Positions 17,025 through 32,582 of a DNA stretch of 64,000 bases are shown piece by piece. Numbering within the stretch: the first letter of the stretch is position 1; each line of letters opens with the position of its first letter. Under the pieces are notes generated by a model. That model saw nothing but the letters and a program-made list of their open reading frames with translations. It was not told the origin of the DNA and ran no database searches. Source of the DNA: Massilia sp. 9I (GTDB lineage: Bacteria; Pseudomonadota; Gammaproteobacteria; Burkholderiales; Burkholderiaceae_D); NCBI RefSeq assembly GCF_902506415.1, contig NZ_LR733275.1, forward strand, positions 3,439,617 to 3,503,616, written 5' to 3'. Made by a program: the position numbers and the translations under genes.

Positions 17025-17414
17025 ATGACTTCAGCAGTATCGGCAGTACCGGCGGCGCCCAGCGACCAGGCGCTGGCCCATTTCAGTGCGGCGTTCAGCT
17101 ACGAGACCGATTGCGCCGACGTGCACCATGCGTTCGCGAGCGGCGAGCAGGATTTCGTCCTGCTCGACGTGCGCAGTCCCGAGCTGTATGCGAAGGGCTA
17201 CGTGCCCGGCGCGCTCAACCTGCCGCAGGGGAAGATCGTCGAGGCCAAGCTGCGCGAGTATCCGATGGAGACGCTGTTCGTGGTCTACTGCGCCGGCCCG
17301 CACTGCAACGGCGCGCACCGCGGCGCCGAGCGCCTGGCCAGGCTGGGACGCCCGGTCAAGCTGATGATCGGCGGCGTCACCGGCTGGCTGGACGAAGGGT
17401 TTGCGCTGGCCTAG
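17025..17414 (+). CDS. rhodanese-like domain protein
   Basis: 129 residues from the ATG at 17025 after GGGAGGA. It is a single rhodanese domain: DFVLLDVRSPELYAKGYVPGALNLP, then the active-site loop VVYCAGPHCNGAHRGA with Cys89, and a closing GGVTGWLDEGF. It would carry a persulfide on Cys89 and act as a sulfurtransferase. It is divergent from ftrA, probably its regulator. Its TAG shares the CTAG at 17411-17414 with the stop of the convergent mshL. Confidence 0.9.
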   Translation: MTSAVSAVPAAPSDQALAHFSAAFSYETDCADVHHAFASGEQDFVLLDVRSPELYAKGYVPGALNLPQGKIVEAKLREYPMETLFVVYCAGPHCNGAHRGAERLARLGRPVKLMIGGVTGWLDEGFALA

Positions 17415-18757
17415 CGGCGTTCGAGCGCGGCCGCCGGTTTCGCCAGCGCCTGCTGGATCTCCTGCCGGTTCTGCTCCACCCGTTCGATCTCCTGCACGTC
17501 CGGCCCGGCTGCATGGGTCGGTACGATGCGCGGCGTGATCACGACGATGGTCTCGGTCAGGTTGCCGGTCTGCTCGTCGTTCGAAAACAGATGGCCCAGC
17601 ACCGGCACGTCGCCCAGCAGGGGCACGCCGGTGCGGCGCTGGCCGGCGCTGGCCTTGATCAGGCCTCCGATCAGGATCGACTGGCCATCCTCGGCCACCA
17701 GCTGGGTGCTCACTTCGGTGGTCTTCTTCGACGGGATCCCGCCCAGTACCGTGCCGGAGCTGACTTCCGGCTTCACCCGCATCACGATCTTGCCGTCGGC
17801 GTCGACCGCCGAGGTCACGCGCAAGATCACGCCGGTGTCGAGAAATTCGATGCTCTCGCTGGTGACGTTATTGATGGTGGTCGTCAGGCGGTAACCTAGC
17901 TTGTCGCCGATGTTGGTGCTGGCTTCCTGGTTTTCCAGCGTCAGCAGCTTGGGCGTGGCCAGGGTGCGCACCTTGCCCTTGTTGCTCAGGGCGTTCAGGT
18001 AGAGGTCGACGTTGTCGTTGACGAAGTTGAACACGAAGCCGGCGCCACGCTGGGCCAGGCCGCTGGTGCCGAAGCGGTTGACGCCGTTGGCGCTGAAGAT
18101 CTTCTGCCAGTCGACCCCGAAGTGCTGGTTGTCGTCGAGCGTGATCTCGAGGATCTTCGCTTCGATCATGATCTGGCGCGGCTGGCGGTCGATCTCGCGC
18201 ATCAGGGATTCGATGCGGGCGATGCCGGCGGCGCTGTCCTCGACGATGATCTGGCGCCGCAGCGGCAGCGCGGTCACCTTGCCGCCCATGCCGACGTGCT
18301 TGGCCAGGATCTCCGCGATCACCTGCGGTTCCGAGTACTGCACCTTGAGCGCCTTGACTTCGAGCCGGCGGTCGCCCGGCGCTGCCATCGTGCCCTGCGC
18401 TCCCTGCGCCGCCTGGGCGGGATTGACGATCATGTAGCCGCGCTCGCGTTCCAGCACCTGGTAGCCGCCGGCCTCGGCGATCGCCTGGATCGCCTGGCGT
18501 GCGCTGACGTCGTACAGGCTGATCGCCACGTTCCCGGTCACGCCCTTGCCGAGCGTGATATTGATGCGCTCGCGGCGCGAGATCATCTCGAACAGTTCGG
18601 CGATCGGGGCATCGCGGAACACCAGCGAAGTGAGGTTGGTTCCGGCGGTGGCCGGTGCGCCCGCGCCCGCTCCGCCTGCGCCGTCCGCGGCTGACAGCGG
18701 CCCGACGGCGGCGGCCAGCATCGCGGCCAGGATTATGTGTGTCGTCTGCTTCATCAT
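17411..18757 (-). CDS. mshL: MSHA-type pilus secretin MshL
   Basis: 448 residues, shorter than most PilQ/MshL. A Sec signal ends about LSA|AD. Residues ~40-105 are a STN/N0-like domain (LVFRDAPIAELFEMISRRERINITLG), then an N1-type domain (LEVKALKVQYSEPQVIAEILAKHVG), and the secretin barrel covers the C-terminal half (QIMIEAKILEITLDDNQHFG, LATPKLLTLENQEASTNIG, VPLLGDVPVLGHLFSNDEQ). It forms the outer-membrane pilus gate. The first of two ATGs overlaps the stop of the PilP-like gene as ATGA. It is the last gene of the operon. Confidence 0.93.
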   Translation of the reverse strand: MMKQTTHIILAAMLAAAVGPLSAADGAGGAGAGAPATAGTNLTSLVFRDAPIAELFEMISRRERINITLGKGVTGNVAISLYDVSARQAIQAIAEAGGYQVLERERGYMIVNPAQAAQGAQGTMAAPGDRRLEVKALKVQYSEPQVIAEILAKHVGMGGKVTALPLRRQIIVEDSAAGIARIESLMREIDRQPRQIMIEAKILEITLDDNQHFGVDWQKIFSANGVNRFGTSGLAQRGAGFVFNFVNDNVDLYLNALSNKGKVRTLATPKLLTLENQEASTNIGDKLGYRLTTTINNVTSESIEFLDTGVILRVTSAVDADGKIVMRVKPEVSSGTVLGGIPSKKTTEVSTQLVAEDGQSILIGGLIKASAGQRRTGVPLLGDVPVLGHLFSNDEQTGNLTETIVVITPRIVPTHAAGPDVQEIERVEQNRQEIQQALAKPAAALERR

Positions 18758-19113
18758 TCGCTGCTTTCCATGTCGCTTGCCCGGTCCGGTGTCCTGTCGA
18801 TTGTCAGCACATTCTTTGTCTTGCCGCGCATGAGCGTGACGCTGCGCTCGTCGATCCTGGCGACCCGGTATGGACCGACCTGGTCGCCCACGCCCACGAT
18901 ATGCCCGCCGATGTTGGCCATCGACTGCACGGAATCGACCATGATTGCGCGCAGCACCGGCAGCGTGCCGGCGGCGGCATCCAGGGCCTCGCTCGAAGGC
19001 GAAGGGGCGGCCTGCATGGGTGGGCGTGCGAAGGGGTCGCGCAGCGGCGCAGCCTGGCAGGCCATGGCGGCCCCAAGCAGCGCCAGCGCGAGAAGGCAAT
19101 GCTGTCGTTTCAT
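18754..19113 (-). CDS. PilP/MshK-like periplasmic pilus assembly protein
   Basis: 119 residues. The signal peptide has a lipobox-like AMAC (Cys19) or an alternative cleavage after QAA. The start LRDPFARPP and the core LPVLRAIMVDSVQSMANIGGHIVGVGDQVGPYRVARIDERSVTLMRGKT form the small beta domain of GspC/PilP/MshK proteins that links inner-membrane PilNO-like proteins to the secretin. ATGA overlaps on both sides place it between the PilO-like gene and mshL. Confidence 0.82.
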   Translation of the reverse strand: MKRQHCLLALALLGAAMACQAAPLRDPFARPPMQAAPSPSSEALDAAAGTLPVLRAIMVDSVQSMANIGGHIVGVGDQVGPYRVARIDERSVTLMRGKTKNVLTIDRTPDRASDMESSE

Positions 19114-19685
19114 GGGGTAGGCTCCAGCGGCCGGTAGGCGGCGATGCGCAGGCGGATGTGGATCGCGCCGGAGGCTTCTTCCGGGCGCATCTCGAAACGG
19201 TCGATCGCCAGGTTGGGGCGCGAGTGTTCGATCGCCTCCATCCAGGCCAGCAGGTCGGCATAGCTGCCGCTGGCTTCGGCGTCGATGCCGTACTGCGTGA
19301 AAACCAGGGTCTTCTGCTCGGCGGCGGGTGTGCTGCCGCGCAGCGCGACGCGGTGCTGGCGCGCCAGCCGGTTGACGTCGCCGATCAGCTGCACCACCAG
19401 CGGTGCGATCGGTCCCGCGACGCCCAGCTGCGCACCGCCCAGCTTGCGCGCCAGCGCTTCGCTGTCGACGCCAAGCTGGGCAAGCTGCGCCTGCAGCAGG
19501 CGCGGATCGCTGCCGGCCTGCGCCAGGCGCGCATGCTCGGCGCGCACGGTGCGCAGCTGCGCCAGCGGGGCGCGCAGCGCGTAGAACCACAGCGCCGCGC
19601 ACAGGATCATCAGGAGTCCGCCGCCTGCCAGGTGCAGCTGGCGCAGCGGCAGCGCTGCCGCCCTGGCCGTCCAGCGCGGGCTCAT
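19110..19685 (-). CDS. PilO/GspM-like (MshJ) inner-membrane pilus assembly protein
   Basis: 191 residues: one N-terminal membrane helix (LHLAGGGLLMILCAALWFYAL), a coiled-coil region rich in LAQL and ALARKL, then a ferredoxin-like domain (VFTQYGIDAEASGSYADLLAWMEAIEHSRPNLAIDRFEMRPEE) as in PilO/MshJ. It would pair with the PilN-like protein in the periplasm. It starts within the end of the PilN-like gene (ATGA) and its stop overlaps the PilP-like start. Confidence 0.82.
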   Translation of the reverse strand: MSPRWTARAAALPLRQLHLAGGGLLMILCAALWFYALRAPLAQLRTVRAEHARLAQAGSDPRLLQAQLAQLGVDSEALARKLGGAQLGVAGPIAPLVVQLIGDVNRLARQHRVALRGSTPAAEQKTLVFTQYGIDAEASGSYADLLAWMEAIEHSRPNLAIDRFEMRPEEASGAIHIRLRIAAYRPLEPTP

Positions 19686-20332
19686 GGCGCACTCCCGGCA
19701 GGACGCAAGGCGCCGGCAACGCTGAAGGCTAGCGACGTGCCGGCATCGGTCTTGCTGGCTGCGCTGTTCAGGAAGCGTACGTCGGCCAGCGCGGGGTCGC
19801 GCGATAAGGCGTTGAGGAAGAGCGACATCGCTTCGTTGTCCTGTGCCTGGCCGGCGATCTCGAGCTGGGTCGCCAGGTGCCAGTGTTCGACGGCGCCGCC
19901 AGCGGCGCCCTGCACCTGCAGGGTGCCCGGGGGCAGCGGCTGGGGCAGGGGATCGCGCAGCAGTTCCTGGGTGCGCGAAAACTGCAGCCCTTCGAACCAG
20001 ACGCCCTCGTTGACGGCGCCGTCGATCGATCCGGCCAGGCGCGCCACCGCGCCGCTGCCGCGCAGCGCCTCCAGGGCGCCGCTGGCCTGCTGCAAGGCTT
20101 GCTTGCGTGTCCCTGCCGCCGCCAGCTGGCCGCGCATCGCTTCGGCCTGCGCGGTGGCGGCGCGCAGCTGGTCCAGCTGCGGCGTCTCGACCGCCAGGCG
20201 CCAGCGCAGCCAGGCGGCGCTCGCGCCACCCACCGCCAGCACCAGCGTCAGCGCGCATCCATAGGCGAACAGCGTGCGGCGTGTGCGCAAGCCTTCGCGG
20301 TAACTGCGCGGGATCATGTCCACGTCAGCCAT
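19682..20332 (-). CDS. PilN-like pilus assembly protein
   Basis: 216 residues from the ATG at 20332. The short cytoplasmic N-terminus VDMIPRSYREGLRTRR contains the IP(x)R-type PilN motif that inserts into PilM, followed by a membrane helix (LFAYGCALTLVLAVGGASAAWL) and a periplasmic coiled coil plus fimbrial-assembly domain (VWFEGLQFSRTQELL, LEIAGQAQDNEAMSLFLNALSRDP). It overlaps the PilM-like gene by 8 bp. Confidence 0.82.
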   Translation of the reverse strand: MADVDMIPRSYREGLRTRRTLFAYGCALTLVLAVGGASAAWLRWRLAVETPQLDQLRAATAQAEAMRGQLAAAGTRKQALQQASGALEALRGSGAVARLAGSIDGAVNEGVWFEGLQFSRTQELLRDPLPQPLPPGTLQVQGAAGGAVEHWHLATQLEIAGQAQDNEAMSLFLNALSRDPALADVRFLNSAASKTDAGTSLAFSVAGALRPAGSAP

Positions 20333-21446
20333 GCTCCACTCCTCGTAATGCGAGTCCCGCAGCCAGCGCGATCCCGTGCATCTGTTCGGACGGGCGCTCC
20401 TTGGCGCCGGCAAAGGCCGCGAACGGATCGAGCACCTCAACCGGCAGCTGCACCAGCTGGGCAATGCGCTGCGGGATGTTGGCGTAGCGCGCCACGCTGC
20501 CGTTCAGGTAGACCCGGCTTACCGTGCTGCCGCGCGTGCGCGAGGCCACGTACACCTGGGTCCGCACCAGCTCTTCGGCCAGCGCCGCGAATTCCGGATG
20601 CAGGATCTCGCGGATGGTGCGGCCCATGTCCGGCGCGCCGGCCTGCAGTTCGTGGCCGGCGGCGGTGCTGCCCGTGCCGTGCTGGCGCAGCAGCGCGAGC
20701 GCGGTGCCGGCGTCCAGGCCGAGGGTCTTGGCGACCTTGTCCACCAGCGTCGCTTCGCCCAGTTCGATTTCTCGGTCAAGCATCAGGCGCCGGCCCCAGA
20801 TCACGGTCAGGTAGCTGCGCGTGCTGCCGAAATTGATCAACAGGACGGACTGGCCGAAATCCTCCTTGTGCATGGCCGCCATCAGGCGGGCGATGGCGGC
20901 CGGGCCGATGTCGAGCGCCACCGGATCCAGGCCGGCGCCGCGCAGCGCCTCCAGGTAGGACACGACGGAGGCAGAGGGTGCGACCGCGGCCAGCACCTGC
21001 TTCTCGGTTCCCGTGTCCGCGCCGCGCACCTGGTAGTAATCGACCACCGATTCCGATGCGCTGGCCCCGAGCTGTTCGCGCACCGCGCGCGCCACCGCCT
21101 GCTGTTCGTTCTGGCCGGCCGGTACGTTGACGGTGAGCGGCAGGATGCGCACGTCGGTGGGCGCCAGCGCGCCAACCATGCGCCGTCCGGAGAAGGGGGC
21201 GGCCGCCAGTGCGCCGCGCACGAAGGCGCGCAGCGCGCGCGGATCGGCCAGCAGGCGCGCGCGTTCGACCGGGTAGAGCAGCGACACGGCCGCGCGCACC
21301 CTGGCGCCGCCGGGGACGGATTCGACCTGCATCATGTTCAGGCTCTCGCCGGCGAAATCGACGCCGATCGGCAGGGCCGGTGCACTGCGCGCCGCCAGGC
21401 GTGCGAATACGCCACGGACTGCGCTCATGTCGATGCGTGCGTTCAT
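20325..21446 (-). CDS. PilM/MshI-like actin-fold pilus assembly protein
   Basis: 373 residues from the ATG at 21446. It has the actin-like ATPase fold of PilM: PIGVDFAGESLNMMQVE (strand and phosphate-1 region), SVLLINFGSTRSYLTVIWG (phosphate-2 region) and SRVYLNGSVARYANIPQRIAQLVQLPVEVLDPF (adenosine region). PilM docks the PilN tail and the extension ATPase. Its first codon overlaps the GGDEF gene stop as ATGA, which ties assembly and signalling genes in one message. Confidence 0.85.
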   Translation of the reverse strand: MNARIDMSAVRGVFARLAARSAPALPIGVDFAGESLNMMQVESVPGGARVRAAVSLLYPVERARLLADPRALRAFVRGALAAAPFSGRRMVGALAPTDVRILPLTVNVPAGQNEQQAVARAVREQLGASASESVVDYYQVRGADTGTEKQVLAAVAPSASVVSYLEALRGAGLDPVALDIGPAAIARLMAAMHKEDFGQSVLLINFGSTRSYLTVIWGRRLMLDREIELGEATLVDKVAKTLGLDAGTALALLRQHGTGSTAAGHELQAGAPDMGRTIREILHPEFAALAEELVRTQVYVASRTRGSTVSRVYLNGSVARYANIPQRIAQLVQLPVEVLDPFAAFAGAKERPSEQMHGIALAAGLALRGVEHG

Positions 21447-22597
21447 GCTGCCACCTCCGGCGCCGCGCCGATACGCATGCCGTTGCCGCCGGCGCGCTTG
21501 GTCTCGTACAGCAGCTCGTCGGCCAGGGGGTAGGCGGCATCGAAAGCGGGGCAGGCGCGCTCGGGCAGGCGCACCAGGCCGAGGCTGACGGTGACCTTGG
21601 CCCCAATCGGCAGCGGCACCCGCATGCGGTCCTGCACCGAGGCCAGCATGCGTGCGGCCCGTTCCGGCACGCCGTCGCCGCACATCAGCAGTGCGAATTC
21701 GTCGCCGCCCAGGCGCGCCAGGTGCTCGTCGGCGGACAGTTGGCCAAAGGCCGCGTGTACCGCGCGCAGCACCTCGTCGCCGGTGGCGTGGCCGAAGCTG
21801 TCGTTGATCGACTTGAAGCGGTCGATGTCGAACAGGCCGAACCAGCTGGGCAGGCCGGCGGCCTGGTGCCGCGCCACCACGCCGGCGAAGGCGGCTTCGA
21901 GGTGGCGCCGGTTCCAGGAGCCGGTCAGGTGATCGCGGTTCGCCAGTTCGGTCAGCTCGCGCTGCGCCCGTTCCAGCTCGAAGCGCAGCGCCAGGTCGTG
22001 CTTGCGCAGGCCGAGGGCGCGGCCGACCAGCGCCAGCGAGATCATGGCCGCGATCAGCATCAGGCATTGCAGCACCCACAGGTCGAGTGCGGCGAAACGG
22101 TAGCTGCTGAGCCATGTGGATGCCGTGAACATCAGGTAGATCGCCCCCAGGGTCATGGCGGCCTCGCGCACGCCCCAGGGCACCACCGGCACCAGCATGA
22201 TCAGCACTGCCACGCTCAGCAGCAGGATGGTGTGCAACTGGCCGACGCGCTGGGCCAGCAGCACCAGCGCCGAACCGCATACGATCAGGAGCAGCATCGC
22301 CAGCAGGTACAGGGCGCGCAGCTGTTCCACCCGCGCGCTGGAGACATAGATGTGCAGCGCGAGCGCGCTCAACACCGAGTAGGTGTAGGTGTAGCCGGTG
22401 CCGAGATTGAACACCGCAGACACGGTCGCCGCCAGCAGCAGGAACAGCAGCGCCACGAGGCTCAGCAGGGCGACGCCGCGTCGCGTTTCGCCGGCGATGA
22501 CGGGCGCGGCATAAGCGGACAGCTCGGGCGCGCCGAAGCTGGTGCAGGACCACACGGTGGATAGTTCGCCAACAATCGTTTCGGTATGCTTTCTCAT
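21443..22597 (-). CDS. membrane GGDEF diguanylate cyclase embedded in the pilus operon
   Basis: 384 residues from the ATG at 22597; a longer start at 22648 would overlap the minor pilin gene. About five to six membrane helices span residues 40-190, followed by a short linker helix and a complete GGDEF domain (DHLTGSWNRRHLE, FDIDRFKSINDSFGHATGDEVL, RLGGDEFALL with GGDEF at 297-301). Catalytic residues are intact; the RxxD product-inhibition site is absent (SADE at the equivalent place). It is expected to make c-di-GMP at the inner membrane. It sits between the DNRLRE pilin and the PilM-like gene. Confidence 0.9.
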   Translation of the reverse strand: MRKHTETIVGELSTVWSCTSFGAPELSAYAAPVIAGETRRGVALLSLVALLFLLLAATVSAVFNLGTGYTYTYSVLSALALHIYVSSARVEQLRALYLLAMLLLIVCGSALVLLAQRVGQLHTILLLSVAVLIMLVPVVPWGVREAAMTLGAIYLMFTASTWLSSYRFAALDLWVLQCLMLIAAMISLALVGRALGLRKHDLALRFELERAQRELTELANRDHLTGSWNRRHLEAAFAGVVARHQAAGLPSWFGLFDIDRFKSINDSFGHATGDEVLRAVHAAFGQLSADEHLARLGGDEFALLMCGDGVPERAARMLASVQDRMRVPLPIGAKVTVSLGLVRLPERACPAFDAAYPLADELLYETKRAGGNGMRIGAAPEVAA

Positions 22598-22619: not shown

Positions 22620-23522
22620 TCATTTGCAGCGCAGGTGGTAGGACACATCCATGCGCGGGCCGTTGTTAATCGCGTTGATGCTGTTGAAGCGTGATTCGTT
22701 CAGGCCGCGGGGCTTGAACAGCACCCCGAAATTCGCCAGCTCGCCGCTGCGCCAGCGCCGCACCAGCGGGCCGATGTCCCAGCGGTAAAACCGGTTGGTG
22801 CCCGCGATCGCCGTGGTGAATTCCGGCCGTGATTCGTAGCTGCCGCCCGGGCTGGTAGTCCATGGCGAATTCCAGGTAGCGCTGCCGTCCGCCCAGCCGC
22901 GCGTGACCGCATGGACCGCCAGTTCACGCACCGTTTGCACAGAGTTAGAGCTGTTCAGGTAGAGCCATAGCGTGGCCTTGGTCACCCGCGAGTCGTTTGG
23001 CAAGCTCGACAGGGATACGCTCAGCAGTGGATGAGCCTTGCCGTCGGTCGCTTCCAGAAAATGGTCGCCGCCTCCATTGGAACTGGCCGGAGCGTCGCTG
23101 TTGATCCAGGTATCTCTGAACTCGCTGTCTGGCAGCACCGTGTCGTACTGGCGCGTGCGGTCGTAGAACACCATCTTGTCGCGTGTGATGCTGCTGACCG
23201 TGCCGCGTGCGGAGGTAGCCGTCACCGTGGCCTTGAATTCATCCTTCTTAACCGTGATGTCGTCGACGCTAGCCGTACCTGCCACCCCGGGCAGTCGCAC
23301 ATTGCTGAAACGCCGCTCGCTGTCGCAGTTGATTTTCTCGTTCTGCCACTTGGCCAGGCGCAGTCCAGCTTCCGCCAGGTAGCGCGTCGCCTCGATGTCG
23401 TACTGGGCATCGACGGCGGAGGCGTCGTCGGCGCCGCCGCGCGTCATGGCATAGGCCAGCGCGCCCATGACCGACAGCGCCAGTGCGACTGGCAACAGCA
23501 GCAGACCGTGCTGGCGCTTCAT
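22620..23522 (-). CDS. minor pilin-like protein with C-terminal DNRLRE domain
   Basis: 300 residues. The N-terminus MKRQHGLLLLPVALALSVMGALAYAM is PilX/MshP-like: a glycine before a hydrophobic helix, without Glu at +5. Residues ~35-130 resemble a PilX-type body (YLAEAGLRLAKWQ). Residues ~145-298 are a DNRLRE domain: ATLWLYL, VTRGWADGSATWNSP, YRWDIGPLVRRWRSGELANFGVLFKPR, then PRMDVSYHL. Such domains occur in surface adhesins, and some bind polysaccharide. I infer a tip or minor pilin carrying an adhesive domain. ATGA overlaps the preceding PilW-like gene. Confidence 0.82.
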   Translation of the reverse strand: MKRQHGLLLLPVALALSVMGALAYAMTRGGADDASAVDAQYDIEATRYLAEAGLRLAKWQNEKINCDSERRFSNVRLPGVAGTASVDDITVKKDEFKATVTATSARGTVSSITRDKMVFYDRTRQYDTVLPDSEFRDTWINSDAPASSNGGGDHFLEATDGKAHPLLSVSLSSLPNDSRVTKATLWLYLNSSNSVQTVRELAVHAVTRGWADGSATWNSPWTTSPGGSYESRPEFTTAIAGTNRFYRWDIGPLVRRWRSGELANFGVLFKPRGLNESRFNSINAINNGPRMDVSYHLRCK

Positions 23523-23998
23523 TTGCTTGGCCCGCCCATGCGTATGGCGATGCTGCCCTGTGCCGCTTCGGCATCCTGTTCCAGCCGCAGCGTGGCCTCG
23601 ATGATGGTCGCGTCGAGGCCGACCGTGCGGGCGCTGACGCCGAAGCTGGCGACCGATTCGGCCACCACGTTGTCGACGCCGTCGCGCACCTCGATCAGCT
23701 GCTTGTTCGCATTGACACGGAAGCGCGACTTGTCGAACCAGGGGCCCGAGTCTGCCTGCACCGTATTCTGAGGCGCCAGTACCTTGCGAGGCGTGTCCCT
23801 GGCAGCGCTGGAGATGCGCTCCAGCGCAAAACGCAGATCCTGGCGGAGTGTTGCGCGGCTGTTGTTCTGTACCCCGGCCCGCAAGCTGGTATCGAGCATG
23901 CCGGCCAGCGGTCCGATCACTAGCGCGGCGATCACGAGTGCCATCAGGAGCTCGATCAGGGTGACACCGTCCTGGCGGGGGAGTCGTCGCAGCGTCAT
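23519..23998 (-). CDS. PilW/MshO-like minor prepilin
   Basis: 159 residues. Type III signal RLPRQDG|VTLIELLMALVIAALVIGPL with Glu at +5, followed by a small globular domain (LRQDLRFALERISSAARDTP, VDNVVAESVASFGVSARTV) typical of PilW/GspJ-like minor pilins. Its start overlaps the stop of the PilV-like gene (ATGA) and its stop overlaps the start of the DNRLRE pilin. Confidence 0.85.
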   Translation of the reverse strand: MTLRRLPRQDGVTLIELLMALVIAALVIGPLAGMLDTSLRAGVQNNSRATLRQDLRFALERISSAARDTPRKVLAPQNTVQADSGPWFDKSRFRVNANKQLIEVRDGVDNVVAESVASFGVSARTVGLDATIIEATLRLEQDAEAAQGSIAIRMGGPSK

Positions 23999-25574: not shown

Positions 25575-25688
25575 GATGATCACAAATTAGAAAGAAAGGC
25601 AATTGCCCTTTAGAAAGTCACTTGAGGTTAGCATGAACCTTCAGCAATGTATATTTCTGAAAGCCATCCTGTTATGAGTGTGGCGTAA

Positions 25689-26816
25689 TTACCGCGTGCT
25701 CATCTTGAATATTGGCAAGATAATTGAACTGACGATAGTGCCGACTAATACACCCATAACCAACAACATTACTGGTTCGGCAAGTTTGGCCAAACGGTTC
25801 AGCTGACGCGTCAGATCGCGCTCGTAAAAATCCGCTACCCGCCCCATTACGCGCCCCAATGAACCGGTCTGTTCGCCCGTGGCGACCATCTGCTTCACAT
25901 TCACGGGAACCAGCGGGCTGTCGGCGAAGCCGGCCGCGATGCCGCGGCCCTCGGTGACCTGGATTTCGAGGACGCCGATAAAACGCTGGAACTCCAGATT
26001 CGGCACCACGTTGCGGCAGGCTGCCAGCGTGGCCATGATGGTGACGCCGCGCTCGAGCGACGCGCCCATCACCCGCATCAGGCGCTCGAGGTAGATCTTG
26101 ATGAAGATGTCCTTCACGAAGGGAATCCGCAGCTTCAGACGGTCCAGCGCGGCTTGCCCGGCCGGCTGCATCGCGGCCGCCACACCCAGCACCAGCAGCA
26201 CGATCGCGCCTGCCAGCAGCTTGCCGCCATGCGCCAGCAGCACTTCGCTGACGACCATTAGGACCTTCGTCGTCGCAGGCAGCTTGTGATAGATCCCCGA
26301 AAACATCGGCGCGAACTTCGGGAATACGTACATCAGAATGAAAATCACGACCACGACCGAGAACACCAGCAGGAAGGCGGGGTAGGACAGGGCCGAGACG
26401 ATGGTGGTGCGCAGCCGTTCCTGTTTCTCGTCCATCTCCACCAGCTGCGCCAGCACCTCGGGCAGGAAGCCGCCGGCCTCGCTGGCGCCGACCAGGTTCA
26501 CGTAGGTCAGGGGGAATAGCTGCGGATGCCGCGCCAGCGCCTCGGAAAAGCGCTGGCCGCCGACGATGGCCTCGGCCATGTCGCCGATGATGGCGGCCAC
26601 CGCCGGCCGGGCGGCCTGCTCCTGCAGGGAGCGCAGCGCCGCGTGGAGCGGCACCCCGGTTTCCAGCAGCAGCGCCAGGCGCTCGGTGAACAGCATGCGG
26701 TCGGCGCTGCCGACCCTGGCCTGGCCGAAGGCCGGCGCCTTGCGCACGCGCCGCGCGATTCCCGCCGCAGGCGCGGTTTTGGCCACCGGTTCCAGCTCGT
26801 CCCAGTCAAGCGCCAT
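25689..26816 (-). CDS. PilC/GspF-type inner-membrane platform protein (MshG-like)
   Basis: 375 residues with the duplicated T2SSF domain: copy 1 (FTERLALLLETGVPLHAALRSLQEQ ... VGASEAGGFLPEVLAQL) and copy 2 (YLERLMRVMGASLERGVTIMATL ... MVATGEQTGSLGRVMGRVADFYERDL), separated by membrane helices, with a last helix before KMSTR. It couples the extension ATPase to pilin insertion. It starts 11 bp after the ATPase gene. Confidence 0.92.
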   Translation of the reverse strand: MALDWDELEPVAKTAPAAGIARRVRKAPAFGQARVGSADRMLFTERLALLLETGVPLHAALRSLQEQAARPAVAAIIGDMAEAIVGGQRFSEALARHPQLFPLTYVNLVGASEAGGFLPEVLAQLVEMDEKQERLRTTIVSALSYPAFLLVFSVVVVIFILMYVFPKFAPMFSGIYHKLPATTKVLMVVSEVLLAHGGKLLAGAIVLLVLGVAAAMQPAGQAALDRLKLRIPFVKDIFIKIYLERLMRVMGASLERGVTIMATLAACRNVVPNLEFQRFIGVLEIQVTEGRGIAAGFADSPLVPVNVKQMVATGEQTGSLGRVMGRVADFYERDLTRQLNRLAKLAEPVMLLVMGVLVGTIVSSIILPIFKMSTR

Positions 26817-26827: not shown

Positions 26828-28861
26828 TTACAGCGAGTGCACCACCCGCGCGATTTCCTCGGGCGTGGTGTGGCCAGCAAAAGCGCGCTGCATGCCGTCG
26901 GCGTAGAGGTCGTGGTGTCCCTGCGCGGCGACGTGGCGCGCCATCTCGTCCTTGCTGGTGTTGGAGACGATCATGCGCTGCAGGTCGGCCCCCACTTCCA
27001 GCAGCTCATAGATGCCGAGCCGTCCCTTGTAGCCGGAGTCGTAGCAGGACGGGCAGCCGCGTCCGCGCATCAGTTTCAGGTTGCCTTCGCCTTTCCAGCC
27101 ATAGGCGGTGGCGGTGGCCGGCGGCACCAGGGAGCCGGTCTTGCAGGAAGGGCAGACGCGGCGCACCAGGCGCTGCGCCATCACGCCGATCAGCGCCGAG
27201 GACAGCAGGTAGGGCTCGACGCCCATCTCGACCAGGCGCGCCACCGCGCCCAGGGTGTCGTTGGTGTGCAGGGTGGTGAGAACCAGGTGGCCGGTCAGCG
27301 CCGCCTGCACTGCGATTTCCGCCGTCTGGCGGTCGCGGATCTCGCCGACCATGATGATGTCCGGGTCCTGGCGCAGCACGTGCTTCAGGATCTTCGGGAA
27401 GGTGAGGCCGATCGCATCGTTGACCTGGTTCTGGTTGATGATGTCGAGCTGGTATTCGACCGGGTCCTCGATCGTGACGATGTTCTTTTCGATGCTCTTG
27501 AGGTAGCTGATCGCCGCGTACAGGCTGGTGGTCTTGCCGCTGCCGGTGGGCCCGGTGACCAGGATCAGACCGTGGCTGCGTCCGAGCAGGCGCTTGAAGG
27601 CGCCTGCGGCATTGTCGTTCATGCCCAGCTTGTCAACGTCGAGGATCGACTGGTTCTTGTCGAGCACCCGCAGCACCACCTTTTCGCCGTAGATGCCGGG
27701 CAGAGAGGAAAAGCGCAGGTCGACCGTGCGGCCCTGGGTCACGACCTGGATGCGGCCGTCCTGCGGCAGGCGCCGTTCGGCGATGTCGAGGTTGGCCATC
27801 ACCTTCAGGCGCGACACGATGGCCGGATGCAGTTCGAGGCGCGGCGACATCACTTCGTACAGCACGCCATCGATGCGCAGGCGCACGCGCGCCTTGTTGC
27901 GCGAGATTTCGATGTGGATGTCGCTGGCGTGGTCGTGGATGGCGCGCTGGATCACCGCGTTGACCAGGTTGATCACCGGGCTGGCGCCGGCCATCTCGTC
28001 GATCGCCGTGTAGTCGTCCGGCATCTGGTTTTCCACCAGCTCCAGGTCGTCGGCGGTGCTGTGCACGAAGTCGGGCAGGGTGCCGCCGTAGGCGTCGTTG
28101 CGCACCCGTTCGATGTCGGCCGGCGCTGCCATCGCCACCCGCACGCGGCAGCCGGTGCGGGCGCGGATCTCGTCGATGCTGTGCACCGCCTGCGGATCGG
28201 CGGTGGCGATGGTGAGCGTATTCGACACCAGGAACAGCGGCAGCACGCCGAGGCGGCGCGCCACCTCGCGGTCCAGCACCGACACTGCCGCCGGGTCGTA
28301 CAGGCCGGCGCGCAGGCCCACGAAGGGCACGCCGAGCTGCTCGGCCAGGGCCTGGAACAGCGCGGCTTCGGGCAGCCACTTCTTCTCGACCATGATCAGA
28401 CCCATGCGCTTGCCGGTCTGCTCCTGCAGGCGCTTGGCTTCGTCCACCTGGGCTGCGCTCACGAGGCCCCGCTCGACCAGGATGTCGCCCAGCTTGGCCT
28501 GGCCCTGGCGCAGCCGGACCGGCGCCGGCGGCGCGTCGTACAGCGCCACCTGGTCGGTCAGGCCGGTGACGTCCAGCACGTCCTGCAGCAGCGGGCTGGG
28601 ATAGGCCAGCTTGAGCCAACCGCCCAGCGCGGCCAGGCGCTCGGCGCTGCTGGCAATGAGCTCCAATGCGCGGCCGGACAGCAGCGCCACCTTGCCCAGG
28701 TCGATGACGATCGTGACCTGGTGCTGCGCGATGCAGGCCGCCAGCGCCGCCTCGAGCGCCGCCACCGCCTCGAGCGACACCAGCGCCATGGTCGGCGCCA
28801 GGTAGGTCATCGAGCCGATGCGGCTGCGGGTAACGGCGTTGTCGGCGGCTTCGTCGCGCAT
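26828..28861 (-). CDS. PilB/MshE-type pilus extension ATPase with N-terminal STAS domain
   Basis: 677 residues. Residues ~18-108 look like a STAS domain (LVSLEAVAALEAALAACIAQHQVTIVIDLGKVALLSGRALELI ... LDVTGLTDQVALYDA), unusual for this family. Residues ~118-255 are an MshEN-type domain, with KLGDIL at 123-128 and a weaker second repeat (RMGLIM at 152-157). The ATPase has Walker A GPTGSGKT (437-444), the Asp box TIEDPVEY, Walker B DIIMVGEIRD and the zinc tetracysteine pairs CPSC (570-573, 603-606). MshEN domains bind c-di-GMP, which fits the cyclase and phosphodiesterase in the same operon; the weak repeats leave binding open. Confidence 0.9.
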   Translation of the reverse strand: MRDEAADNAVTRSRIGSMTYLAPTMALVSLEAVAALEAALAACIAQHQVTIVIDLGKVALLSGRALELIASSAERLAALGGWLKLAYPSPLLQDVLDVTGLTDQVALYDAPPAPVRLRQGQAKLGDILVERGLVSAAQVDEAKRLQEQTGKRMGLIMVEKKWLPEAALFQALAEQLGVPFVGLRAGLYDPAAVSVLDREVARRLGVLPLFLVSNTLTIATADPQAVHSIDEIRARTGCRVRVAMAAPADIERVRNDAYGGTLPDFVHSTADDLELVENQMPDDYTAIDEMAGASPVINLVNAVIQRAIHDHASDIHIEISRNKARVRLRIDGVLYEVMSPRLELHPAIVSRLKVMANLDIAERRLPQDGRIQVVTQGRTVDLRFSSLPGIYGEKVVLRVLDKNQSILDVDKLGMNDNAAGAFKRLLGRSHGLILVTGPTGSGKTTSLYAAISYLKSIEKNIVTIEDPVEYQLDIINQNQVNDAIGLTFPKILKHVLRQDPDIIMVGEIRDRQTAEIAVQAALTGHLVLTTLHTNDTLGAVARLVEMGVEPYLLSSALIGVMAQRLVRRVCPSCKTGSLVPPATATAYGWKGEGNLKLMRGRGCPSCYDSGYKGRLGIYELLEVGADLQRMIVSNTSKDEMARHVAAQGHHDLYADGMQRAFAGHTTPEEIARVVHSL

Positions 28862-28862
28862 C

Positions 28863-30365
28863 TCAGGCTACCGCTGCGGCGCGCTCGCGCTGGATGTTGA
28901 AGCGTGCGATCCATTCCGGTTCGAGCGCGCAGATCTGTTCCAGCACGCGCACCACCGACGGGTCGAGCTGGACGCCGGACACGCGCGCGATCTCGGTCAT
29001 CGCCACTTCGTGGCTGCGTCCGGCGCGATAGGCGCGCGAGCTGGTGATCGAGTCATAGGTGTCGGCCACCGCGATGATGCGCGCCAGCAGCGGGATGTCG
29101 GTACCCTGCAGCCCATGCGGGTAGCCGGTGCCGTCCCATTTTTCCTGGTGGTGGCGGGCGCCCGGCACCGCGCCCTTGAGGCGGTCGATGTGGCGCAGGA
29201 TCTCGTAGCTGCGCTCGGGGTGCACCATGATGAAAGTGTATTCGTCGGCCGTCAGGCGGCCCGGTTTGCACAGCACCGCATCGGGGATGCCGATCTTGCC
29301 GACGTCGTGCAGGAGCGAACCCCAGAACAGGTCGTCGGTGTCGCGGCTGGACAGCCCCATGGCGGCGCCGATCTGCATCGAGATGTAGTGCACGCGCTCG
29401 GAATGGCCGCGCGTGTAGGGGTCTTTCGCTTCCACCGCTTCGATCAGGGCATTCGCCATCTGCTCGTTGAAGCGGCTGGTCTCGGTCAGCATGCCGTACA
29501 TGCGCGACAGGCTGGAGAGCTGATTCGCCAGCAGTTCGCCGAGCTTGCGGTCGCTGTTCGAGAAATCGGGCTTGGCCAAGTGGTTGGCCAGCACCAGGAT
29601 CGCCACCACGTTGCGGTTGTGGATCACCGGACAGCACAGCAGTTTATAGGGCAGGTCGGTGAAGATGTAGGCGCGGCGCGGGTCGCCCGTTTCGTTGATC
29701 ACGATCGGCGCGCGCGAGGAATGCGCGAAGCGGTACAGGTCCCCGCGCATCTCGACCAGCACCAGATCCAGGTTGTGGATCGGCGCCGACAGATTGGTCG
29801 CGTGCACGCACAGGTTCTCGCCCGGCTTTACGAAGGCGGCGACGTCGCAGTCCATGTGCACGGCCCAGCTTTGCAGCAGGCGCTGGAACAGGTCGACGCC
29901 CGGTTCCAACTGCTGCACCTGCTTGTCGATGGCGTACACCAGGTGCAGCTCTTCGTAGCGTTCGGACAGCTCGAGCGCCATGGCGTCGAGTTCGACCTTG
30001 GACGCGATGTCGTCGGCGATGCCGGCAGCGATGTCCTCGAGCGTCTCGGCCAGCAGGTCCCAACCGCTGTCCGGTTCCGTGCTTGCGACCCGTATCGCCA
30101 GGAAGCCATGCGAGCGCACCGGCAGGTAGAGTAGGGTGGCGTCTGGCGCATCATGGCGCTGCATGCCGTCGCCGACGCAGGACCAGGCAAAGCCGCTTTC
30201 CGCCAGCGCCGCCAGCCAGGACGCGATACTTGACCCCGACACGCTGCTCCAGGCGACGGCGCCGCCGATCCCGACGACGGCCAGGTCGTAGTCGGCGCCG
30301 GTGACGCGGCGCAGCCAGCGCGCATAGCGGGTGTAATCGAGCTCGCTCAGGGTATCAGCTTGCAT
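28863..30365 (-). CDS. GAF-HD-GYP c-di-GMP phosphodiesterase in the pilus operon
   Basis: 500 residues from the ATG at 30365. After an N-terminal region of unknown fold (1-150), residues ~155-290 are a GAF domain (FQRLLQSWAVHMDCDVAAF ... YKLLCCPVIHNRNVVAILVLANH). Residues ~300-490 are HD-GYP with HSERV (321-325), LLHDVGKIGIPD (HD at 353-354), VHPERS and HHQEKWDGTGYPHG (405-418), all catalytic positions intact. It should hydrolyse c-di-GMP and sense a small molecule or redox state through GAF. It overlaps the REC gene by 11 bp and ends one base before the ATPase start. Confidence 0.9.
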   Translation of the reverse strand: MQADTLSELDYTRYARWLRRVTGADYDLAVVGIGGAVAWSSVSGSSIASWLAALAESGFAWSCVGDGMQRHDAPDATLLYLPVRSHGFLAIRVASTEPDSGWDLLAETLEDIAAGIADDIASKVELDAMALELSERYEELHLVYAIDKQVQQLEPGVDLFQRLLQSWAVHMDCDVAAFVKPGENLCVHATNLSAPIHNLDLVLVEMRGDLYRFAHSSRAPIVINETGDPRRAYIFTDLPYKLLCCPVIHNRNVVAILVLANHLAKPDFSNSDRKLGELLANQLSSLSRMYGMLTETSRFNEQMANALIEAVEAKDPYTRGHSERVHYISMQIGAAMGLSSRDTDDLFWGSLLHDVGKIGIPDAVLCKPGRLTADEYTFIMVHPERSYEILRHIDRLKGAVPGARHHQEKWDGTGYPHGLQGTDIPLLARIIAVADTYDSITSSRAYRAGRSHEVAMTEIARVSGVQLDPSVVRVLEQICALEPEWIARFNIQRERAAAVA

Positions 30366-30759
30366 GCTGGGTCTCCGGCCCGCTCCCGCGGGCATTGAAA
30401 TGGTCGGCCAGTCGCGCCACCAGCTGGCGCGGGCTCAGGGGCTTTTCCAGGAATTCGACGTTCGCCAGGGAGCGCACCCAGGTGCGCTCGTCGGCCGCGG
30501 TCATCGAGGTCATCACCAGGATCGGGAAGTGCTCGCCGGGCCAGCGCTCGCGCACCGCGCGGCACAGGTCGCGCCCGTTCATGCCCGCCATCTGGATGTC
30601 GCTGATCAGGGCGTCCGGGCGGCTGTCCGCCATCAGCGCCAGCGCTTCAAGGCCGTCGGCGGCGGAGAGGACGCGGTAGCCTTCGCGCTCCAGCATCAGG
30701 CGCAGCACGCGGATCACGTGCGCTTCGTCGTCGACGATCAGGATGCTGCGCTTGCTCAT
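30355..30759 (-). CDS. single-domain response regulator (REC)
   Basis: 134 residues, REC only: acidic pair in ILIVDDEAHVIRVL, phosphoacceptor Asp in ALISDIQMAGMNG, conserved Thr/Ser in ILVMTSM and Lys in FLEKPLSPRQL. With no output domain it must act by protein contact, with its operon partners (HD-GYP protein or STAS-ATPase) as obvious candidates. ATGA overlaps with the kinase gene upstream. Confidence 0.9.
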   Translation of the reverse strand: MSKRSILIVDDEAHVIRVLRLMLEREGYRVLSAADGLEALALMADSRPDALISDIQMAGMNGRDLCRAVRERWPGEHFPILVMTSMTAADERTWVRSLANVEFLEKPLSPRQLVARLADHFNARGSGPETQHAS

Positions 30760-32582
30760 AGGACGTTGGCGCTTTCGGCGAGCGAAGGCATCTTTTTGAG
30801 GTGGATGGAGAAGGTGCTGCCCTGGCCCGGCTGGCTTTCCAGGGTCAGGCGGCCGTGGTGCAGTTCGACGATCTGGTTGGCCAGGTACAGGCCCAGGCCA
30901 TGGCCGCCGCGCTGGCTAGGGCCGGTCTCGCGCACGCGGTAGAACTTCTCGGTCACGCGCGCCTGGTCTTCCAGCGCCATGCCGATGCCGGTGTCGCGCA
31001 CCGTGATCACCACGTCGCTGTCGCCCTCTTCGGCCGCCAGCACCACGCTGCCGCCGGCGTCGTTGTACTTGATCGCATTGCCGACCAGGTTGTTGAGCGC
31101 GATGCGGAACAGGTCCTTGTCGATCGAGACCGCCGGGATATCCTGCGGTACCTGCAGCTCGAGCTTGACCTTCTTCTGCTGGGCGCGCGGCTGCGCCTGC
31201 AGCCAGGTGTCGTGCAGCAGCTCGTGCAGCTTGACGCGGTGGCGCTCGGGGCGCACATTGCCCATCTCGAGCTTGCTCACGTTGAGCAGGTTGTTCACGA
31301 GCGAAGTCATGCGTTCGATCTGGTCCTGCACCACATTGACCGCCTCGATGCGCTGGTCCGGTCCGGTCGCCGGGTCGGCCAGCAGCTCGCCGTACATCGA
31401 CAGCACGTTGAGCGGCGACTTCAGTTCGTGCGAGACGTGGGCGACGAAGTCGTTGCCGGCGGCGCGCGCCAGGTGTTCGGCGGTGACGTCGCGCAGCACT
31501 ACCAGCGAGCCGAAGGAGACGGCGCCGCCGGCAGCATGCAGCGGCGATACGCTGGCGTGCAGGCGCTTGTCCGGCACCCGCACCGGCGTGAATTCGAAAC
31601 TCAGGGGACGCCGCGTATCGGCGGCGCCGCTGCGCAGGCGCTGCAGCACGGCGCGCAATTCGGCGTCCTCGCACCAGGTGTCGACCGGCTGGGTCAGCAC
31701 CGCGGTCACCGGCACGCCCAGCAGCGGCTCGAGCTTGGCAGTGGCGAAGGTGATGTCGCCGCCCGGATCGAGCGCCAGCAGGCCGTCCGGCTGGCAGTGC
31801 AGCATGGCCTGCATCTTGTTGGTCGTGTATTCGAGCAGGCGGCCGCTGGCCAGGTTGGCCACGCTGGATTCCTCCAGTTCGCGGATGCGGCGTCCGGCCT
31901 GGTCCAGATAGCTGTTCAGTTCCAGCGCGAGCCCTTTCACGTCCTGTTCGCGGGTGGCCGGGAGCGCAGCGGCGCCCTGGCTGCCGCCAAGGCTGTGCAG
32001 CTGTTCGCCGAGTTTCGCCAGTGGCGCCATCTCGCGCTTGATGACCAGGTAGATCAGAGGCACCAGCAGGAACACGGCCAGCGCCACCAGGCCGTAGAAG
32101 GGCAGGTCTTTCAGGCCGTCGGCGATGCGCGGCTCATAGTAGCCGATGCGGATCTGCAGGCGTGCGCCGTCGGGATCGGCCACGGGGCCATGGAATTCAC
32201 GCACGGAAGCGGGCATGTCTTGGGTGGGCGCGAGCACGCGTTCGGAGAAGCCGGACAGGGCCATCGGGACGGCGGGCGGCACCAGCACGCCCGGTCCGGC
32301 CACTTCGGCCAGGTTGCGCCCGCCGGCGTCGGTGACGGCGGCATAGGCGAAGTCGCGCCGGCCGCCGTTGGCCAGGACCGAATCGAGTACGCCGTACTGC
32401 CCCGCGCGCGGCACCAGCACCGTGGCCGGCAGCGCCGACAATGAGCGGATGGTGGCCAGGCCCTGCACGCGCAGCTGCGCGGCTGCATCTGCCTGCTGGC
32501 GCTGCAGCAGCATGGCCACGATCAGGGCGATCACTGCCAGCGAGGAGACGACAAGGATGATGCCGATCCGGTTGTTTTTCAT
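30756..32582 (-). CDS. membrane sensor histidine kinase with PAS domain, first gene of the pilus operon
   Basis: 608 residues. TM1 at ~6-27 and TM2 at ~161-181 enclose a ~130-residue periplasmic sensor. A HAMP-like linker follows, then PAS (~255-370, HCQPDGLLALDPGG ... LVVLRDVTAEH). The HisKA box is FVAHVSHELKSPLN with His385; the N box is NNLVGNAIKYND, with G boxes DTGIGM and GGHGLGLYLA. It overlaps the REC gene by ATGA, so the two form a cognate pair. A good promoter lies 50-80 bp upstream. Confidence 0.92.
   Translation of the reverse strand: MKNNRIGIILVVSSLAVIALIVAMLLQRQQADAAAQLRVQGLATIRSLSALPATVLVPRAGQYGVLDSVLANGGRRDFAYAAVTDAGGRNLAEVAGPGVLVPPAVPMALSGFSERVLAPTQDMPASVREFHGPVADPDGARLQIRIGYYEPRIADGLKDLPFYGLVALAVFLLVPLIYLVIKREMAPLAKLGEQLHSLGGSQGAAALPATREQDVKGLALELNSYLDQAGRRIRELEESSVANLASGRLLEYTTNKMQAMLHCQPDGLLALDPGGDITFATAKLEPLLGVPVTAVLTQPVDTWCEDAELRAVLQRLRSGAADTRRPLSFEFTPVRVPDKRLHASVSPLHAAGGAVSFGSLVVLRDVTAEHLARAAGNDFVAHVSHELKSPLNVLSMYGELLADPATGPDQRIEAVNVVQDQIERMTSLVNNLLNVSKLEMGNVRPERHRVKLHELLHDTWLQAQPRAQQKKVKLELQVPQDIPAVSIDKDLFRIALNNLVGNAIKYNDAGGSVVLAAEEGDSDVVITVRDTGIGMALEDQARVTEKFYRVRETGPSQRGGHGLGLYLANQIVELHHGRLTLESQPGQGSTFSIHLKKMPSLAESANVL

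What the first reader, a model, noticed from the sequence alone, without database searches (positions are those of the whole stretch)
17411..32582. A 15 kb pilus operon with a built-in two-component pair and a full c-di-GMP cycle
Sixteen co-directional genes, most joined by ATGA overlaps or gaps under about 25 bp, encode a histidine kinase, REC, GAF-HD-GYP phosphodiesterase, STAS/MshEN-PilB ATPase, PilC/MshG, five pilin-like proteins, a GGDEF cyclase, PilM-N-O-P-like proteins and the MshL secretin. MshE-type ATPases are known to respond to c-di-GMP. Having the synthesising and degrading enzymes plus a phosphorelay in the same message suggests a self-contained, locally controlled pilus. I do not know a described system with this exact set; that novelty is inference.
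Basis: partly seen in the sequence, partly recalled or inferred. Interest (0 to 1): 0.75.

Follow-up and report, generated by a model that had tools for sequence, protein, structure and literature searches.

The report
Bacterial pilus operon carrying its own switch
A bacterium related to the genus Massilia carries one 15-kb gene block for a surface filament together with its own sensor, relay and messenger-degrading enzyme; much the same block, in the same order, turns up in distant bacteria, so it looks like an old, unnamed kind of self-regulated pilus rather than the familiar MSHA pilus.

Summary
In detail: sixteen co-directional genes run from window 32582 down to 17411, with 14 of 15 junctions at 22 bp or less. 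It is not the MSHA locus: the secretin fails the MshL cut-off, no mshM is present, and the same genome has a separate MshL. Of 62 same-genus (Massilia) genomes, 25 hold the motor gene. The motors form one clade. It is in 13 of 25 Massilia-type loci and in none of the five complete loci outside. Core are histidine kinase, stand-alone REC, a GAF-linked phosphodiesterase (HD-GYP; GAF-GGDEF-EAL in one lineage), STAS and an MshEN-type motor. Best explanation: a type IV filament whose extension motor is switched by its own phosphorelay, phosphodiesterase and STAS module, with a carbohydrate-binding tip pilin. Direction of control and c-di-GMP binding are inferred. I rate it a new variant of a known kind.

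The parts
30756..32582 (-). histidine kinase: N-terminal membrane-anchored sensor region (topology by eye), PAS, HisKA, HATPase_c (608 aa)
   Evidence: Pfam; H-box HELKSPLN in window and 23 of 24 other loci, HELASPLQ in L141; aligns over residues 4-598 with the G872 and G874 kinases; reading frame split in L138
30355..30759 (-). stand-alone REC receiver (134 aa), no output domain
   Evidence: Pfam; phospho-acceptor Asp kept in 24 of 24 aligned and in 6 of 6 relatives outside the genus that were read
28863..30365 (-). GAF-HD-GYP phosphodiesterase (500 aa from the inner ATG; 510 aa from an upstream ATG)
   Evidence: Pfam; HD-x-GK and DGxGYP in 24 of 24 aligned and 6 of 6 outside; second His of HHE is Gln here
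26828..28861 (-). extension-motor ATPase: STAS - MshEN - T2SSE (677 aa)
   Evidence: Pfam; NCBIfam c-di-GMP motif NF053729 52 bits, cut-off 38; clade
25689..26816 (-). inner-membrane platform protein, GspF/PilC type
   Evidence: Pfam T2SSF 152 bits
25575..25688 (-). 114-bp spacer before the pilin gene; possible pilin promoter
   Evidence: 114-147 bp in 24 of 24 other loci; TGTTAC[TC]CT in 16 of 24, a looser form in 21 of 24; no sigma-70 consensus on the minus strand
24984..25574 (-). major pilin-like protein, GspG/ComGC-like N-terminus (196 aa)
   Evidence: N_methyl (scanned from an upstream start); GspG 48.5 bits below cut-off 88.85; model pLDDT 81, no PDB match at E<=0.001
24428..24973 (-). 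minor pilin, GspH-like
   Evidence: Pfam GspH 22.6 bits, cut-off 21
23995..24426 (-). minor pilin, GspI/PilV-like
   Evidence: no Pfam match; NCBIfam PilV 18.4 bits, below cut-off
23519..23998 (-). minor pilin, GspJ-like by position
   Evidence: N_methyl; weak HpsC pseudopilin match
22620..23522 (-). large minor pilin-like protein with CBM96/DNRLRE head, candidate tip adhesin (300 aa)
   Evidence: CBM96 39.8 bits, DNRLRE 77.6 bits, no N_methyl match; model pLDDT 85 with long N-helix plus beta-sandwich, head nearest to a chondroitin-sulfate-binding CBM
21443..22597 (-). GGDEF protein (diguanylate cyclase) with hydrophobic N-terminal half, accessory
   Evidence: Pfam 91.9 bits; GGDEF motif intact and no RxxD at the I-site position in 13 of 13; present in 13 of 25 loci
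20325..21446 (-). PilM-like
   Evidence: PilM_2 58.9 bits; TIGR01175 88.4 bits, below cut-off 133
19682..20332 (-). PilN-like, by position
   Evidence: translation; no pilus-family match; found in 24 of 24 other loci
19110..19685 (-). PilO/GspM-like
   Evidence: T2SSM_b 25.5 bits; GspM 26.2 bits, below cut-off; counterparts in L218 and L219 match Pfam PilO
18754..19113 (-). PilP/GspC-like small protein, by position
   Evidence: NCBIfam GspC 17.3 bits, below cut-off; found in 24 of 24 other loci
17411..18757 (-). outer-membrane secretin (448 aa)
   Evidence: Pfam Secretin 139 bits; PilQ and GspD 198 bits, MshL 147 bits, all below curated cut-offs

Best explanation
This is a dedicated type IV filament operon with a built-in switch on its extension motor. 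Inferred working: the membrane histidine kinase senses a signal at the envelope and passes phosphate to the stand-alone REC protein. REC~P acts by contact on the GAF-linked phosphodiesterase and/or the STAS domain of the motor. The phosphodiesterase removes c-di-GMP beside the motor's MshEN domain, which lowers extension; in lineages that have it, the GGDEF protein tops the messenger up. The motor and GspF-type platform then polymerise the GspG-like major pilin, capped by minor pilins H, I, J and a large pilin with a sugar-binding head, through PilM-N-O-P and the secretin, giving an adhesive filament for polysaccharide surfaces. Shown here: gene content, order and overlaps, conserved phosphorelay and most catalytic residues, common descent of the motors, the accessory nature of the cyclase, and an EAL-type replacement of the HD-GYP domain in the same slot in one lineage. 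Inferred: REC target, direction of control, c-di-GMP binding by this MshEN, role of STAS, tip position and ligand.
For: The order HK-REC-PDE-STAS-motor-GspF-pilins-PilMNOP-secretin recurs in the other Massilia-type loci (REC and HD-GYP in 23 of 24) and complete in L219, L243/L255, L252, L253 and L254; in a Schekmanbacteria MAG (L070) it is cut by the contig end. The motors form one clade (9 Massilia-type rows plus 7 others, SH-aLRT 99), apart from six other motors of the same genome. HD-GYP and motor are the most conserved proteins (median identity to window 74.9% and 79.1%, against 62.7% for HK and 32-49% for the pilins). In L218 the third slot holds GAF-GGDEF-EAL with a degenerate GGDEF (AGNEF) and an EAL that keeps EILIR and DDFGAG: a different phosphodiesterase fold behind a related GAF region. 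The motor passes the NCBIfam c-di-GMP motif model. In V. [quoted passage not shown] Seven other loci in the order have REC fused to an MshEN-ATPase beside kinases and an HD-GYP gene (domains confirmed in L155), hinting that phosphorelays reach such motors.
Against: The first MshEN half-site is changed in Massilia (K-L-G-V-A/K/F-Q instead of R-L-G-L-L-Q), and the Gly of motif II is Lys or Arg in the Massilia rows read, so affinity may be low. The second His of HHE is Gln in the window and G872-G874, so HD-GYP activity is unproven; its best PDB hit is a 3'3'-cGAMP phosphodiesterase. G035 keeps the pilus genes without REC and HD-GYP, and the kinase frame is split in G059 (L138). GGDEF, where present, is also well kept (median 70.9%). 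The usual STAS phospho-Ser is not conserved in the alignment. In L243 the tip protein has no Pfam CBM96 match. The Schekmanbacteria MAG gave no secretin match at 1e-70. No prepilin peptidase or retraction ATPase lies in the window operon. Nothing was tested in cells.
Confidence: 0.55

Rival explanations
1. The machine is a secretion pseudopilus (type II secretion-like) rather than a surface pilus: the short filament pushes substrates, and the CBM96 pilin selects them.
For: Motor, platform, major pilin, PilO and PilP score nearest to GspE, GspF, GspG, GspM and GspC among NCBIfam models; four minor pilins in H-I-J-(K) order; no PilT-like gene in the operon except in L070.
Against: None of those scores passes its cut-off; PilM and PilO Pfam matches in this family are pilus-type; no GspL or GspN match among the 16 genes; the genome has another T2SS-like motor with a secretin and pilins beside it (L142).
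Confidence: 0.25
2. Control runs through protein contacts rather than local c-di-GMP: HD-GYP, GGDEF or STAS act as scaffolds that recruit or release the motor, as reported for RpfG in Xanthomonas.
For: RpfG controls pilus motility through HD-GYP, GGDEF and PilZ contacts with PilT/PilU, independent of cyclase activity (PMC3749722, passages); STAS is an interaction domain (recalled) and is fused to the motor; MshEN site partly degenerate; HHE to HQE.
Against: Catalytic HD and GYP residues conserved in 24 of 24 plus 6 of 6; an EAL domain replaces HD-GYP in L218, which suggests selection for hydrolysis, not for one surface.
Confidence: 0.3
3. The signalling genes are passengers: they are co-transcribed but adjust the cell-wide c-di-GMP pool and do not act on this pilus.
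For: GGDEF comes and goes; G035 lacks REC and HD-GYP yet keeps the pilus genes.
Against: HK-REC-PDE-STAS-motor linkage is kept across lineages with 47% identity between window and L070 motors; HK-REC overlap of 4 bp in 23 of 23; none of the 46 non-family motor loci annotated shows STAS or HD-GYP within its flank of at most 1.5 kb.
Confidence: 0.15
4. It is an ordinary MSHA pilus locus with extra genes.
For: MshEN domain on the motor; order E-G-A-(C,D,O) pilins resembles msh gene order (recalled).
Against: Secretin 147 bits against MshL cut-off 250; no mshM; the genome has a separate MshL at 254 bits about 12 kb from another motor; the window motor lies in a different clade from that one.
Confidence: 0.02

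Closest known systems
MSHA pilus (Vibrio cholerae msh locus)
   Same: Single locus with MshEN-type extension ATPase, platform protein, pilin set, PilM/O/P-like genes and secretin (gene list recalled); motor control by c-di-GMP is known there (PMC7096442, abstract and passages)
   Different: No mshM, secretin not MshL; carries its own HK, REC, phosphodiesterase and STAS; separate clade; an MshL exists elsewhere in the same genome
Type IVa pilus (PilB-PilC-PilM-N-O-P-Q)
   Same: PilM-N-O-P-secretin alignment block and pilins
   Different: GspG-like major pilin; no PilT, PilD or PilY1 recognised in the operon; no NCBIfam PilB or PilQ cut-off passed
Type II secretion system
   Same: GspE, GspF, GspG, GspH, GspM are among the nearest NCBIfam models
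   Different: below every cut-off; PilM instead of GspL; signalling genes built in
RpfC-RpfG control of Xanthomonas pili
   Same: Histidine kinase, receiver and HD-GYP controlling pili
   Different: RpfG is an HD-GYP response regulator and acts on PilT/PilU through GGDEF and PilZ proteins (PMC3749722, passages); here REC is separate, the HD-GYP is GAF-linked, and both sit in the pilus operon beside the extension motor
'Generic' type IV filament systems of Denise et al. 2019
   Same: ATPase, platform, major pilin and secretin present without matching a named type; 884 such systems were counted there (PMC6668835, passages)
   Different: whether this exact operon is among those 884 was not checked

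Membership tests
Type IV filament superfamily | Extension ATPase, inner-membrane platform and type IV pilin in one locus | tested here: met
   T2SSE 461 bits, T2SSF 152 bits, N_methyl pilins
Type IV filament superfamily | Assembles a filament | not testable with these tools
   needs microscopy
MSHA pilus | MshL-type secretin over curated cut-off | tested here: not met
   147.2 bits, cut-off 250.2
MSHA pilus | mshM ATPase (mandatory in Denise 2019 model, PMC6668835 passages) | tested here: not met
   no such match among the 16 genes
MSHA pilus | MshE-type motor with c-di-GMP motif | tested here: inconclusive
   NF053729 52 bits over cut-off 38, but half-site 1 altered and a different clade from the motor near the genome's MshL
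Type IVa pilus | PilB equivalog and PilQ subfamily over cut-off | tested here: not met
   PilB 565 of 675.65; PilQ 198 of 284.35
Type II secretion system | GspE, GspF, GspD, GspG over cut-off | tested here: not met
   576 of 630; 269 of 424; 198 of 351; 48.5 of 88.85
HD-GYP phosphodiesterases | HD pair and DGxGYP motif | tested here: met
   24 of 24 aligned and 6 of 6 outside the genus
HD-GYP phosphodiesterases | HH of the HHExxDGxGYP motif (metal ligands, recalled) | tested here: not met
   second His is Gln in window and G872-G874, His in G199, G202, G849; whether working HD-GYP proteins vary here was not checked
Active diguanylate cyclases | GGDEF active-site motif | tested here: met
   GGDEF in 13 of 13 orthologues; RxxD inhibitory site absent in 13 of 13
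SpoIIAA-like phosphorylatable STAS | Conserved phospho-acceptor Ser | tested here: inconclusive
   alignment puts Gly/Arg opposite the Ser pair of 1h4x, at a weak E of 0.13

The most novel reading that the evidence does not exclude
A separate, unnamed class of type IV filament, defined by an inherited motor-switch module (histidine kinase, REC, GAF-phosphodiesterase, STAS) built into the pilus operon. REC~P, STAS and the phosphodiesterase form a complex on the motor that sets c-di-GMP at the machine itself, independent of the cell pool, and lineages plug in different phosphodiesterases (HD-GYP or EAL) and different tip heads (CBM96, NHL propeller).
Probability: 0.4. Interest if true: 0.75.

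Novelty: new variant of a known kind. Interest (0 to 1): 0.6.

Why it matters
Whether c-di-GMP signalling is local to one machine or set by the cell-wide pool is a long-standing question. Here a single operon holds sensor, relay, eraser, receptor-motor and, in about half the Massilia-type loci, writer. Natural variants exist: closely related loci with and without the cyclase, one without REC and HD-GYP, and one lineage with GGDEF-EAL in place of HD-GYP. That makes local signalling directly testable. It would also give a name to one group of filament systems that existing classifications would probably leave as 'generic' (inference).

Tried and rejected
Rejected: standard MSHA locus. Rejected: complete c-di-GMP cycle as a conserved property. 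Rejected: the Planctomycetes GspF hits (32-37% identity) as kin of the operon; apart from L070, no locus among L050-L118 gave an HK, REC or HD-GYP match, and the five sampled motors fall outside the clade. Many of those loci are short contigs. Rejected: phosphorylated STAS as the shown mechanism; the Ser is not aligned. G317, G822, G801, G375 and G240, found by secretin and fetched (with G856 and G849, 7 of the 14 genomes hit), do not show HD-GYP or STAS in the fetched stretch. G856 has the PilM-to-secretin half plus REC and HK, but its contig starts before the motor, so it was not counted. The major-pilin model gave no useful PDB match. The promoter scan found no sigma-70 site on the operon strand. 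Viral, plasmid, phage and E. coli collections were not searched.

Genome samples overlap and must not be summed. Only the 30 loci returned and the 20 returned were checked for neighbours, with flanks of at most 1.5 kb. PilN was not detected by HMM in L243 and L253, nor PpJ in 4 and PilO in 3 of 24 Massilia-type loci; the gaps there are of gene size. The labels T2SS-like and MSHA for other loci of the own genome rest on arrangement and on the MshL score only. Trees were built by the 'quick' method. Changes on a tree do not tell gain from loss.


Full report
1. What is there. The window lies in a 5.53-Mb genome. Its nearest relatives by platform protein are records titled Massilia (10 of the 11 loci at 62% identity or more; the other is a MAG titled Janthinobacterium), so I treat it as Massilia. 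On the minus strand, sixteen genes run from 32582 to 17411: histidine kinase, REC, GAF-HD-GYP, STAS-MshEN-T2SSE motor, GspF-type platform, major pilin, GspH-, GspI- and GspJ-like pilins, a pilin-like protein with a CBM96/DNRLRE head, GGDEF, PilM, PilN, PilO, PilP and secretin. Seven of 15 junctions are 4-bp overlaps, and 14 of 15 are 22 bp or less. The exception is a 114-bp spacer before the major pilin; it is 114-147 bp in 24 of 24 other loci, with TGTTAC[TC]CT in 16 of 24. A divergent SUV3-like helicase and a convergent rhodanese gene bound the operon.

2. It is not MSHA. No component reaches an NCBIfam equivalog cut-off for MSHA, T4aP or T2SS in the matches shown. The secretin scores 147 bits against MshL (cut-off 250), less than against PilQ or GspD (198 each). 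There is no mshM, which is mandatory in the MSH model of Denise et al. (PMC6668835, passages read). The same genome has a secretin just over the MshL cut-off (254.3 against 250.2) at C7:5329690, about 12 kb from another motor at 5342252. In the motor tree that motor (L144) groups with motors of other lineages and not with the window's.

3. Distribution. In one search, 25 of 62 same-genus genomes (own included) hold the STAS motor at 76% identity or more. None of the 137 genomes from other genera does: their best E-value is 1.4e-131 against 2.3e-286 or lower in the 25, and listed matches there are 52% identity or less and begin at residue 79 or later (the list of places was cut). A secretin profile (A2) hit 2 of 398 genomes drawn from the phylum at 1e-70 (own and G529), 14 of 290 relatives of G202 at 1e-70 (only G202, G856 and G849 above 300 bits), 4 of 193 relatives of G849 at 1e-85, itself included, and 1 of 241 relatives of G856, itself. 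The G529 motor had a match at 1e-150 in 1 of 48 genomes of its class, itself. These samples overlap. So the system is rare and patchy in what was searched.

4. The same operon elsewhere. L219 (G202), L243 with L255 (G849), L252 (G872), L253 (G873; kinase cut by the contig end) and L254 (G874) carry HK-REC-HD-GYP-STAS-motor-platform-pilins-PilM...secretin in the window's order without a GGDEF gene. PilN is detected in three of these five; in L219 PilO comes from Pfam and PilP from position. L070, a Candidatus Schekmanbacteria MAG, has HK-REC-HD-GYP-STAS-motor-(PilT-like ATPase)-platform-pilins up to its contig end; that genome (G199) gave no secretin match at 1e-70, so its second half may be missing or lost. 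L218 (G529, another class of the phylum) has PilM-to-secretin on one strand and HK-REC-(GAF-GGDEF-EAL)-STAS-motor-platform divergent from it, up to the contig end. STAS is a separate gene in six genomes (G199, G202, G849, G872-G874) and fused to the motor in Massilia and G529, which are sisters in the tree. All sixteen family motors form one clade (SH-aLRT 99, quick method) in a set of 55. As a control, of the 50 loci L168-L217 annotated, the 4 with STAS or HD-GYP are the window's own, G199, G202 and G529; the 46 others have neither within flanks of at most 1.5 kb.

5. Which signalling parts are core. HD-GYP and REC are present in 24 of 25 Massilia-type loci, counting the window. The exception, G035, joins HK directly to the motor, and no orthologous HD-GYP was found elsewhere in that genome (best 40% over the C-terminal domain). 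The kinase is split over two frames in L138, a lesion or a sequence error. GGDEF is present in 13 of 25, with at least five changes on the tree. Near neighbours differ: L120 has it and L122 has a 218-bp spacer with a remnant, a clear loss; L124 has it and L126 an 88-bp spacer; L123 has it and L130 a 28-bp spacer. It is absent from the five complete loci outside; L070 and L218 are incomplete. So the phosphodiesterase and phosphorelay are core and the cyclase is an add-on, well kept where present (GGDEF motif in 13 of 13, no RxxD in 13 of 13; median identity 70.9%).

6. Are the parts intact? HD-x-GK and DGxGYP are kept in 24 of 24 aligned Massilia-type proteins and 6 of 6 outside. The second His of HHE, a metal ligand as I recall, is Gln in the window's family and in G872-G874. 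The REC Asp is kept in 24 of 24 and in 6 of 6 read outside. In L218 the GGDEF reads AGNEF while EAL keeps EILIR and DDFGAG, so this slot again holds a likely phosphodiesterase on a related GAF region (74 bits to the HD-GYP profile over residues 86-322). The MshEN domain keeps the Gly at position 3 and the closing Gln of both motifs in 17 of 17 family motors listed, but the first motif's Arg is Lys (15) or Met (2), and in Massilia and G529 its two later Leu are changed. Wang et al. (PMC5013675, abstract and passages) define the motif, and the NCBIfam model for it is passed by the window motor. Binding is therefore plausible, not shown.

7. The filament. The 300-aa pilin-like protein is modelled (pLDDT 85) as a long N-terminal helix, a small beta domain and a beta-sandwich head. 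Its best structural match is a chondroitin-sulfate-binding CBM (8wab, E 1.8e-8); pro-TGF-beta2 chains (E 6.4e-5) and an alginate-binding CBM (7vbo, E 1.6e-4) follow. In G849, G872, G873 and G874 the same position holds proteins that match the Massilia profile at 69-95 bits, though the one scanned (L243) has no Pfam CBM96 match. In L219 it holds a 462-aa protein with an NHL propeller and only a marginal PilX_N match. I infer a tip adhesin with exchangeable heads. Pilins diverge most (median 32-49% identity), motor and HD-GYP least.

8. Mechanism. By analogy with V. cholerae MSHA, where c-di-GMP on MshE promotes extension (PMC7096442, abstract and passages), the simplest reading is that the phosphodiesterase turns the motor down at the site and HK-REC gates it. 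RpfG in Xanthomonas shows that an HD-GYP can also act on pili by contact, independent of cyclase activity (PMC3749722, passages), so a contact model is a serious rival. REC fused to an MshEN-ATPase beside kinases and an HD-GYP gene in seven other loci of the order (L154-L159, L164, 7 of the 14 fetched; domains confirmed by Pfam in L155 only) suggests that phosphorelays do reach such motors. Of these seven, L154 and L157 were in the tree and lie outside the clade.

9. Novelty. Eight literature searches, read as listings and abstract starts, showed no description of this operon or of a STAS-MshEN-ATPase; the library lacks most subscription papers and preprints. I rate it a new variant of a known kind: an unclassified type IV filament operon with an inherited motor-switch module.

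Noticed in passing
L154-L159, L164 (for example L155 807-10716): A second kind of motor cluster in other families of the same order: HK, REC-HD-GYP, REC, HK, then a REC-MshEN-T2SSE ATPase (7 of 14 loci fetched). Pilus genes were detected nearby in one of the seven (L159, other strand). Domains confirmed by Pfam in L155 only.
   Followed up: partly
window 32749-34785 (+): SUV3-like RNA helicase (DEXQ-box, SUV3_C) divergent from the operon; this flank is shared with 11 of 24 Massilia-type loci, so the operon seems to sit at more than one chromosomal place in the genus.
   Followed up: partly
window 25575-25688 and equivalents: GspF-pilin spacer of 114-147 bp in 24 of 24 other loci with TGTTAC[TC]CT in 16 of 24, perhaps an extended -10 for the pilin gene.
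   Followed up: partly
L223 / L141 (G035): Operon with REC and HD-GYP missing, HK abutting the motor, H-box changed to HELASPLQ, GGDEF kept: a natural loss of part of the switch.
   Followed up: partly
L138 14469-16282 (G059): Kinase reading frame split in two: a lesion or a sequence error.
   Followed up: no
L070 7415-8482: PilT-like ATPase (T2SSE C-terminal part) inside the Schekmanbacteria version of the operon, between motor and platform gene.
   Followed up: no
L219 1365-2747: Sigma-54 response regulator (REC, AAA, Fis-type HTH) directly after the secretin gene.
   Followed up: no
G000:C7 545000-564900 (L146): Another filament operon in the own genome: 667-aa motor, platform, pilins and secretin; not classified.
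   Followed up: no
L242 (G856): PilM-to-secretin half of a related operon followed by REC and HK genes; contig starts before the motor.
   Followed up: partly
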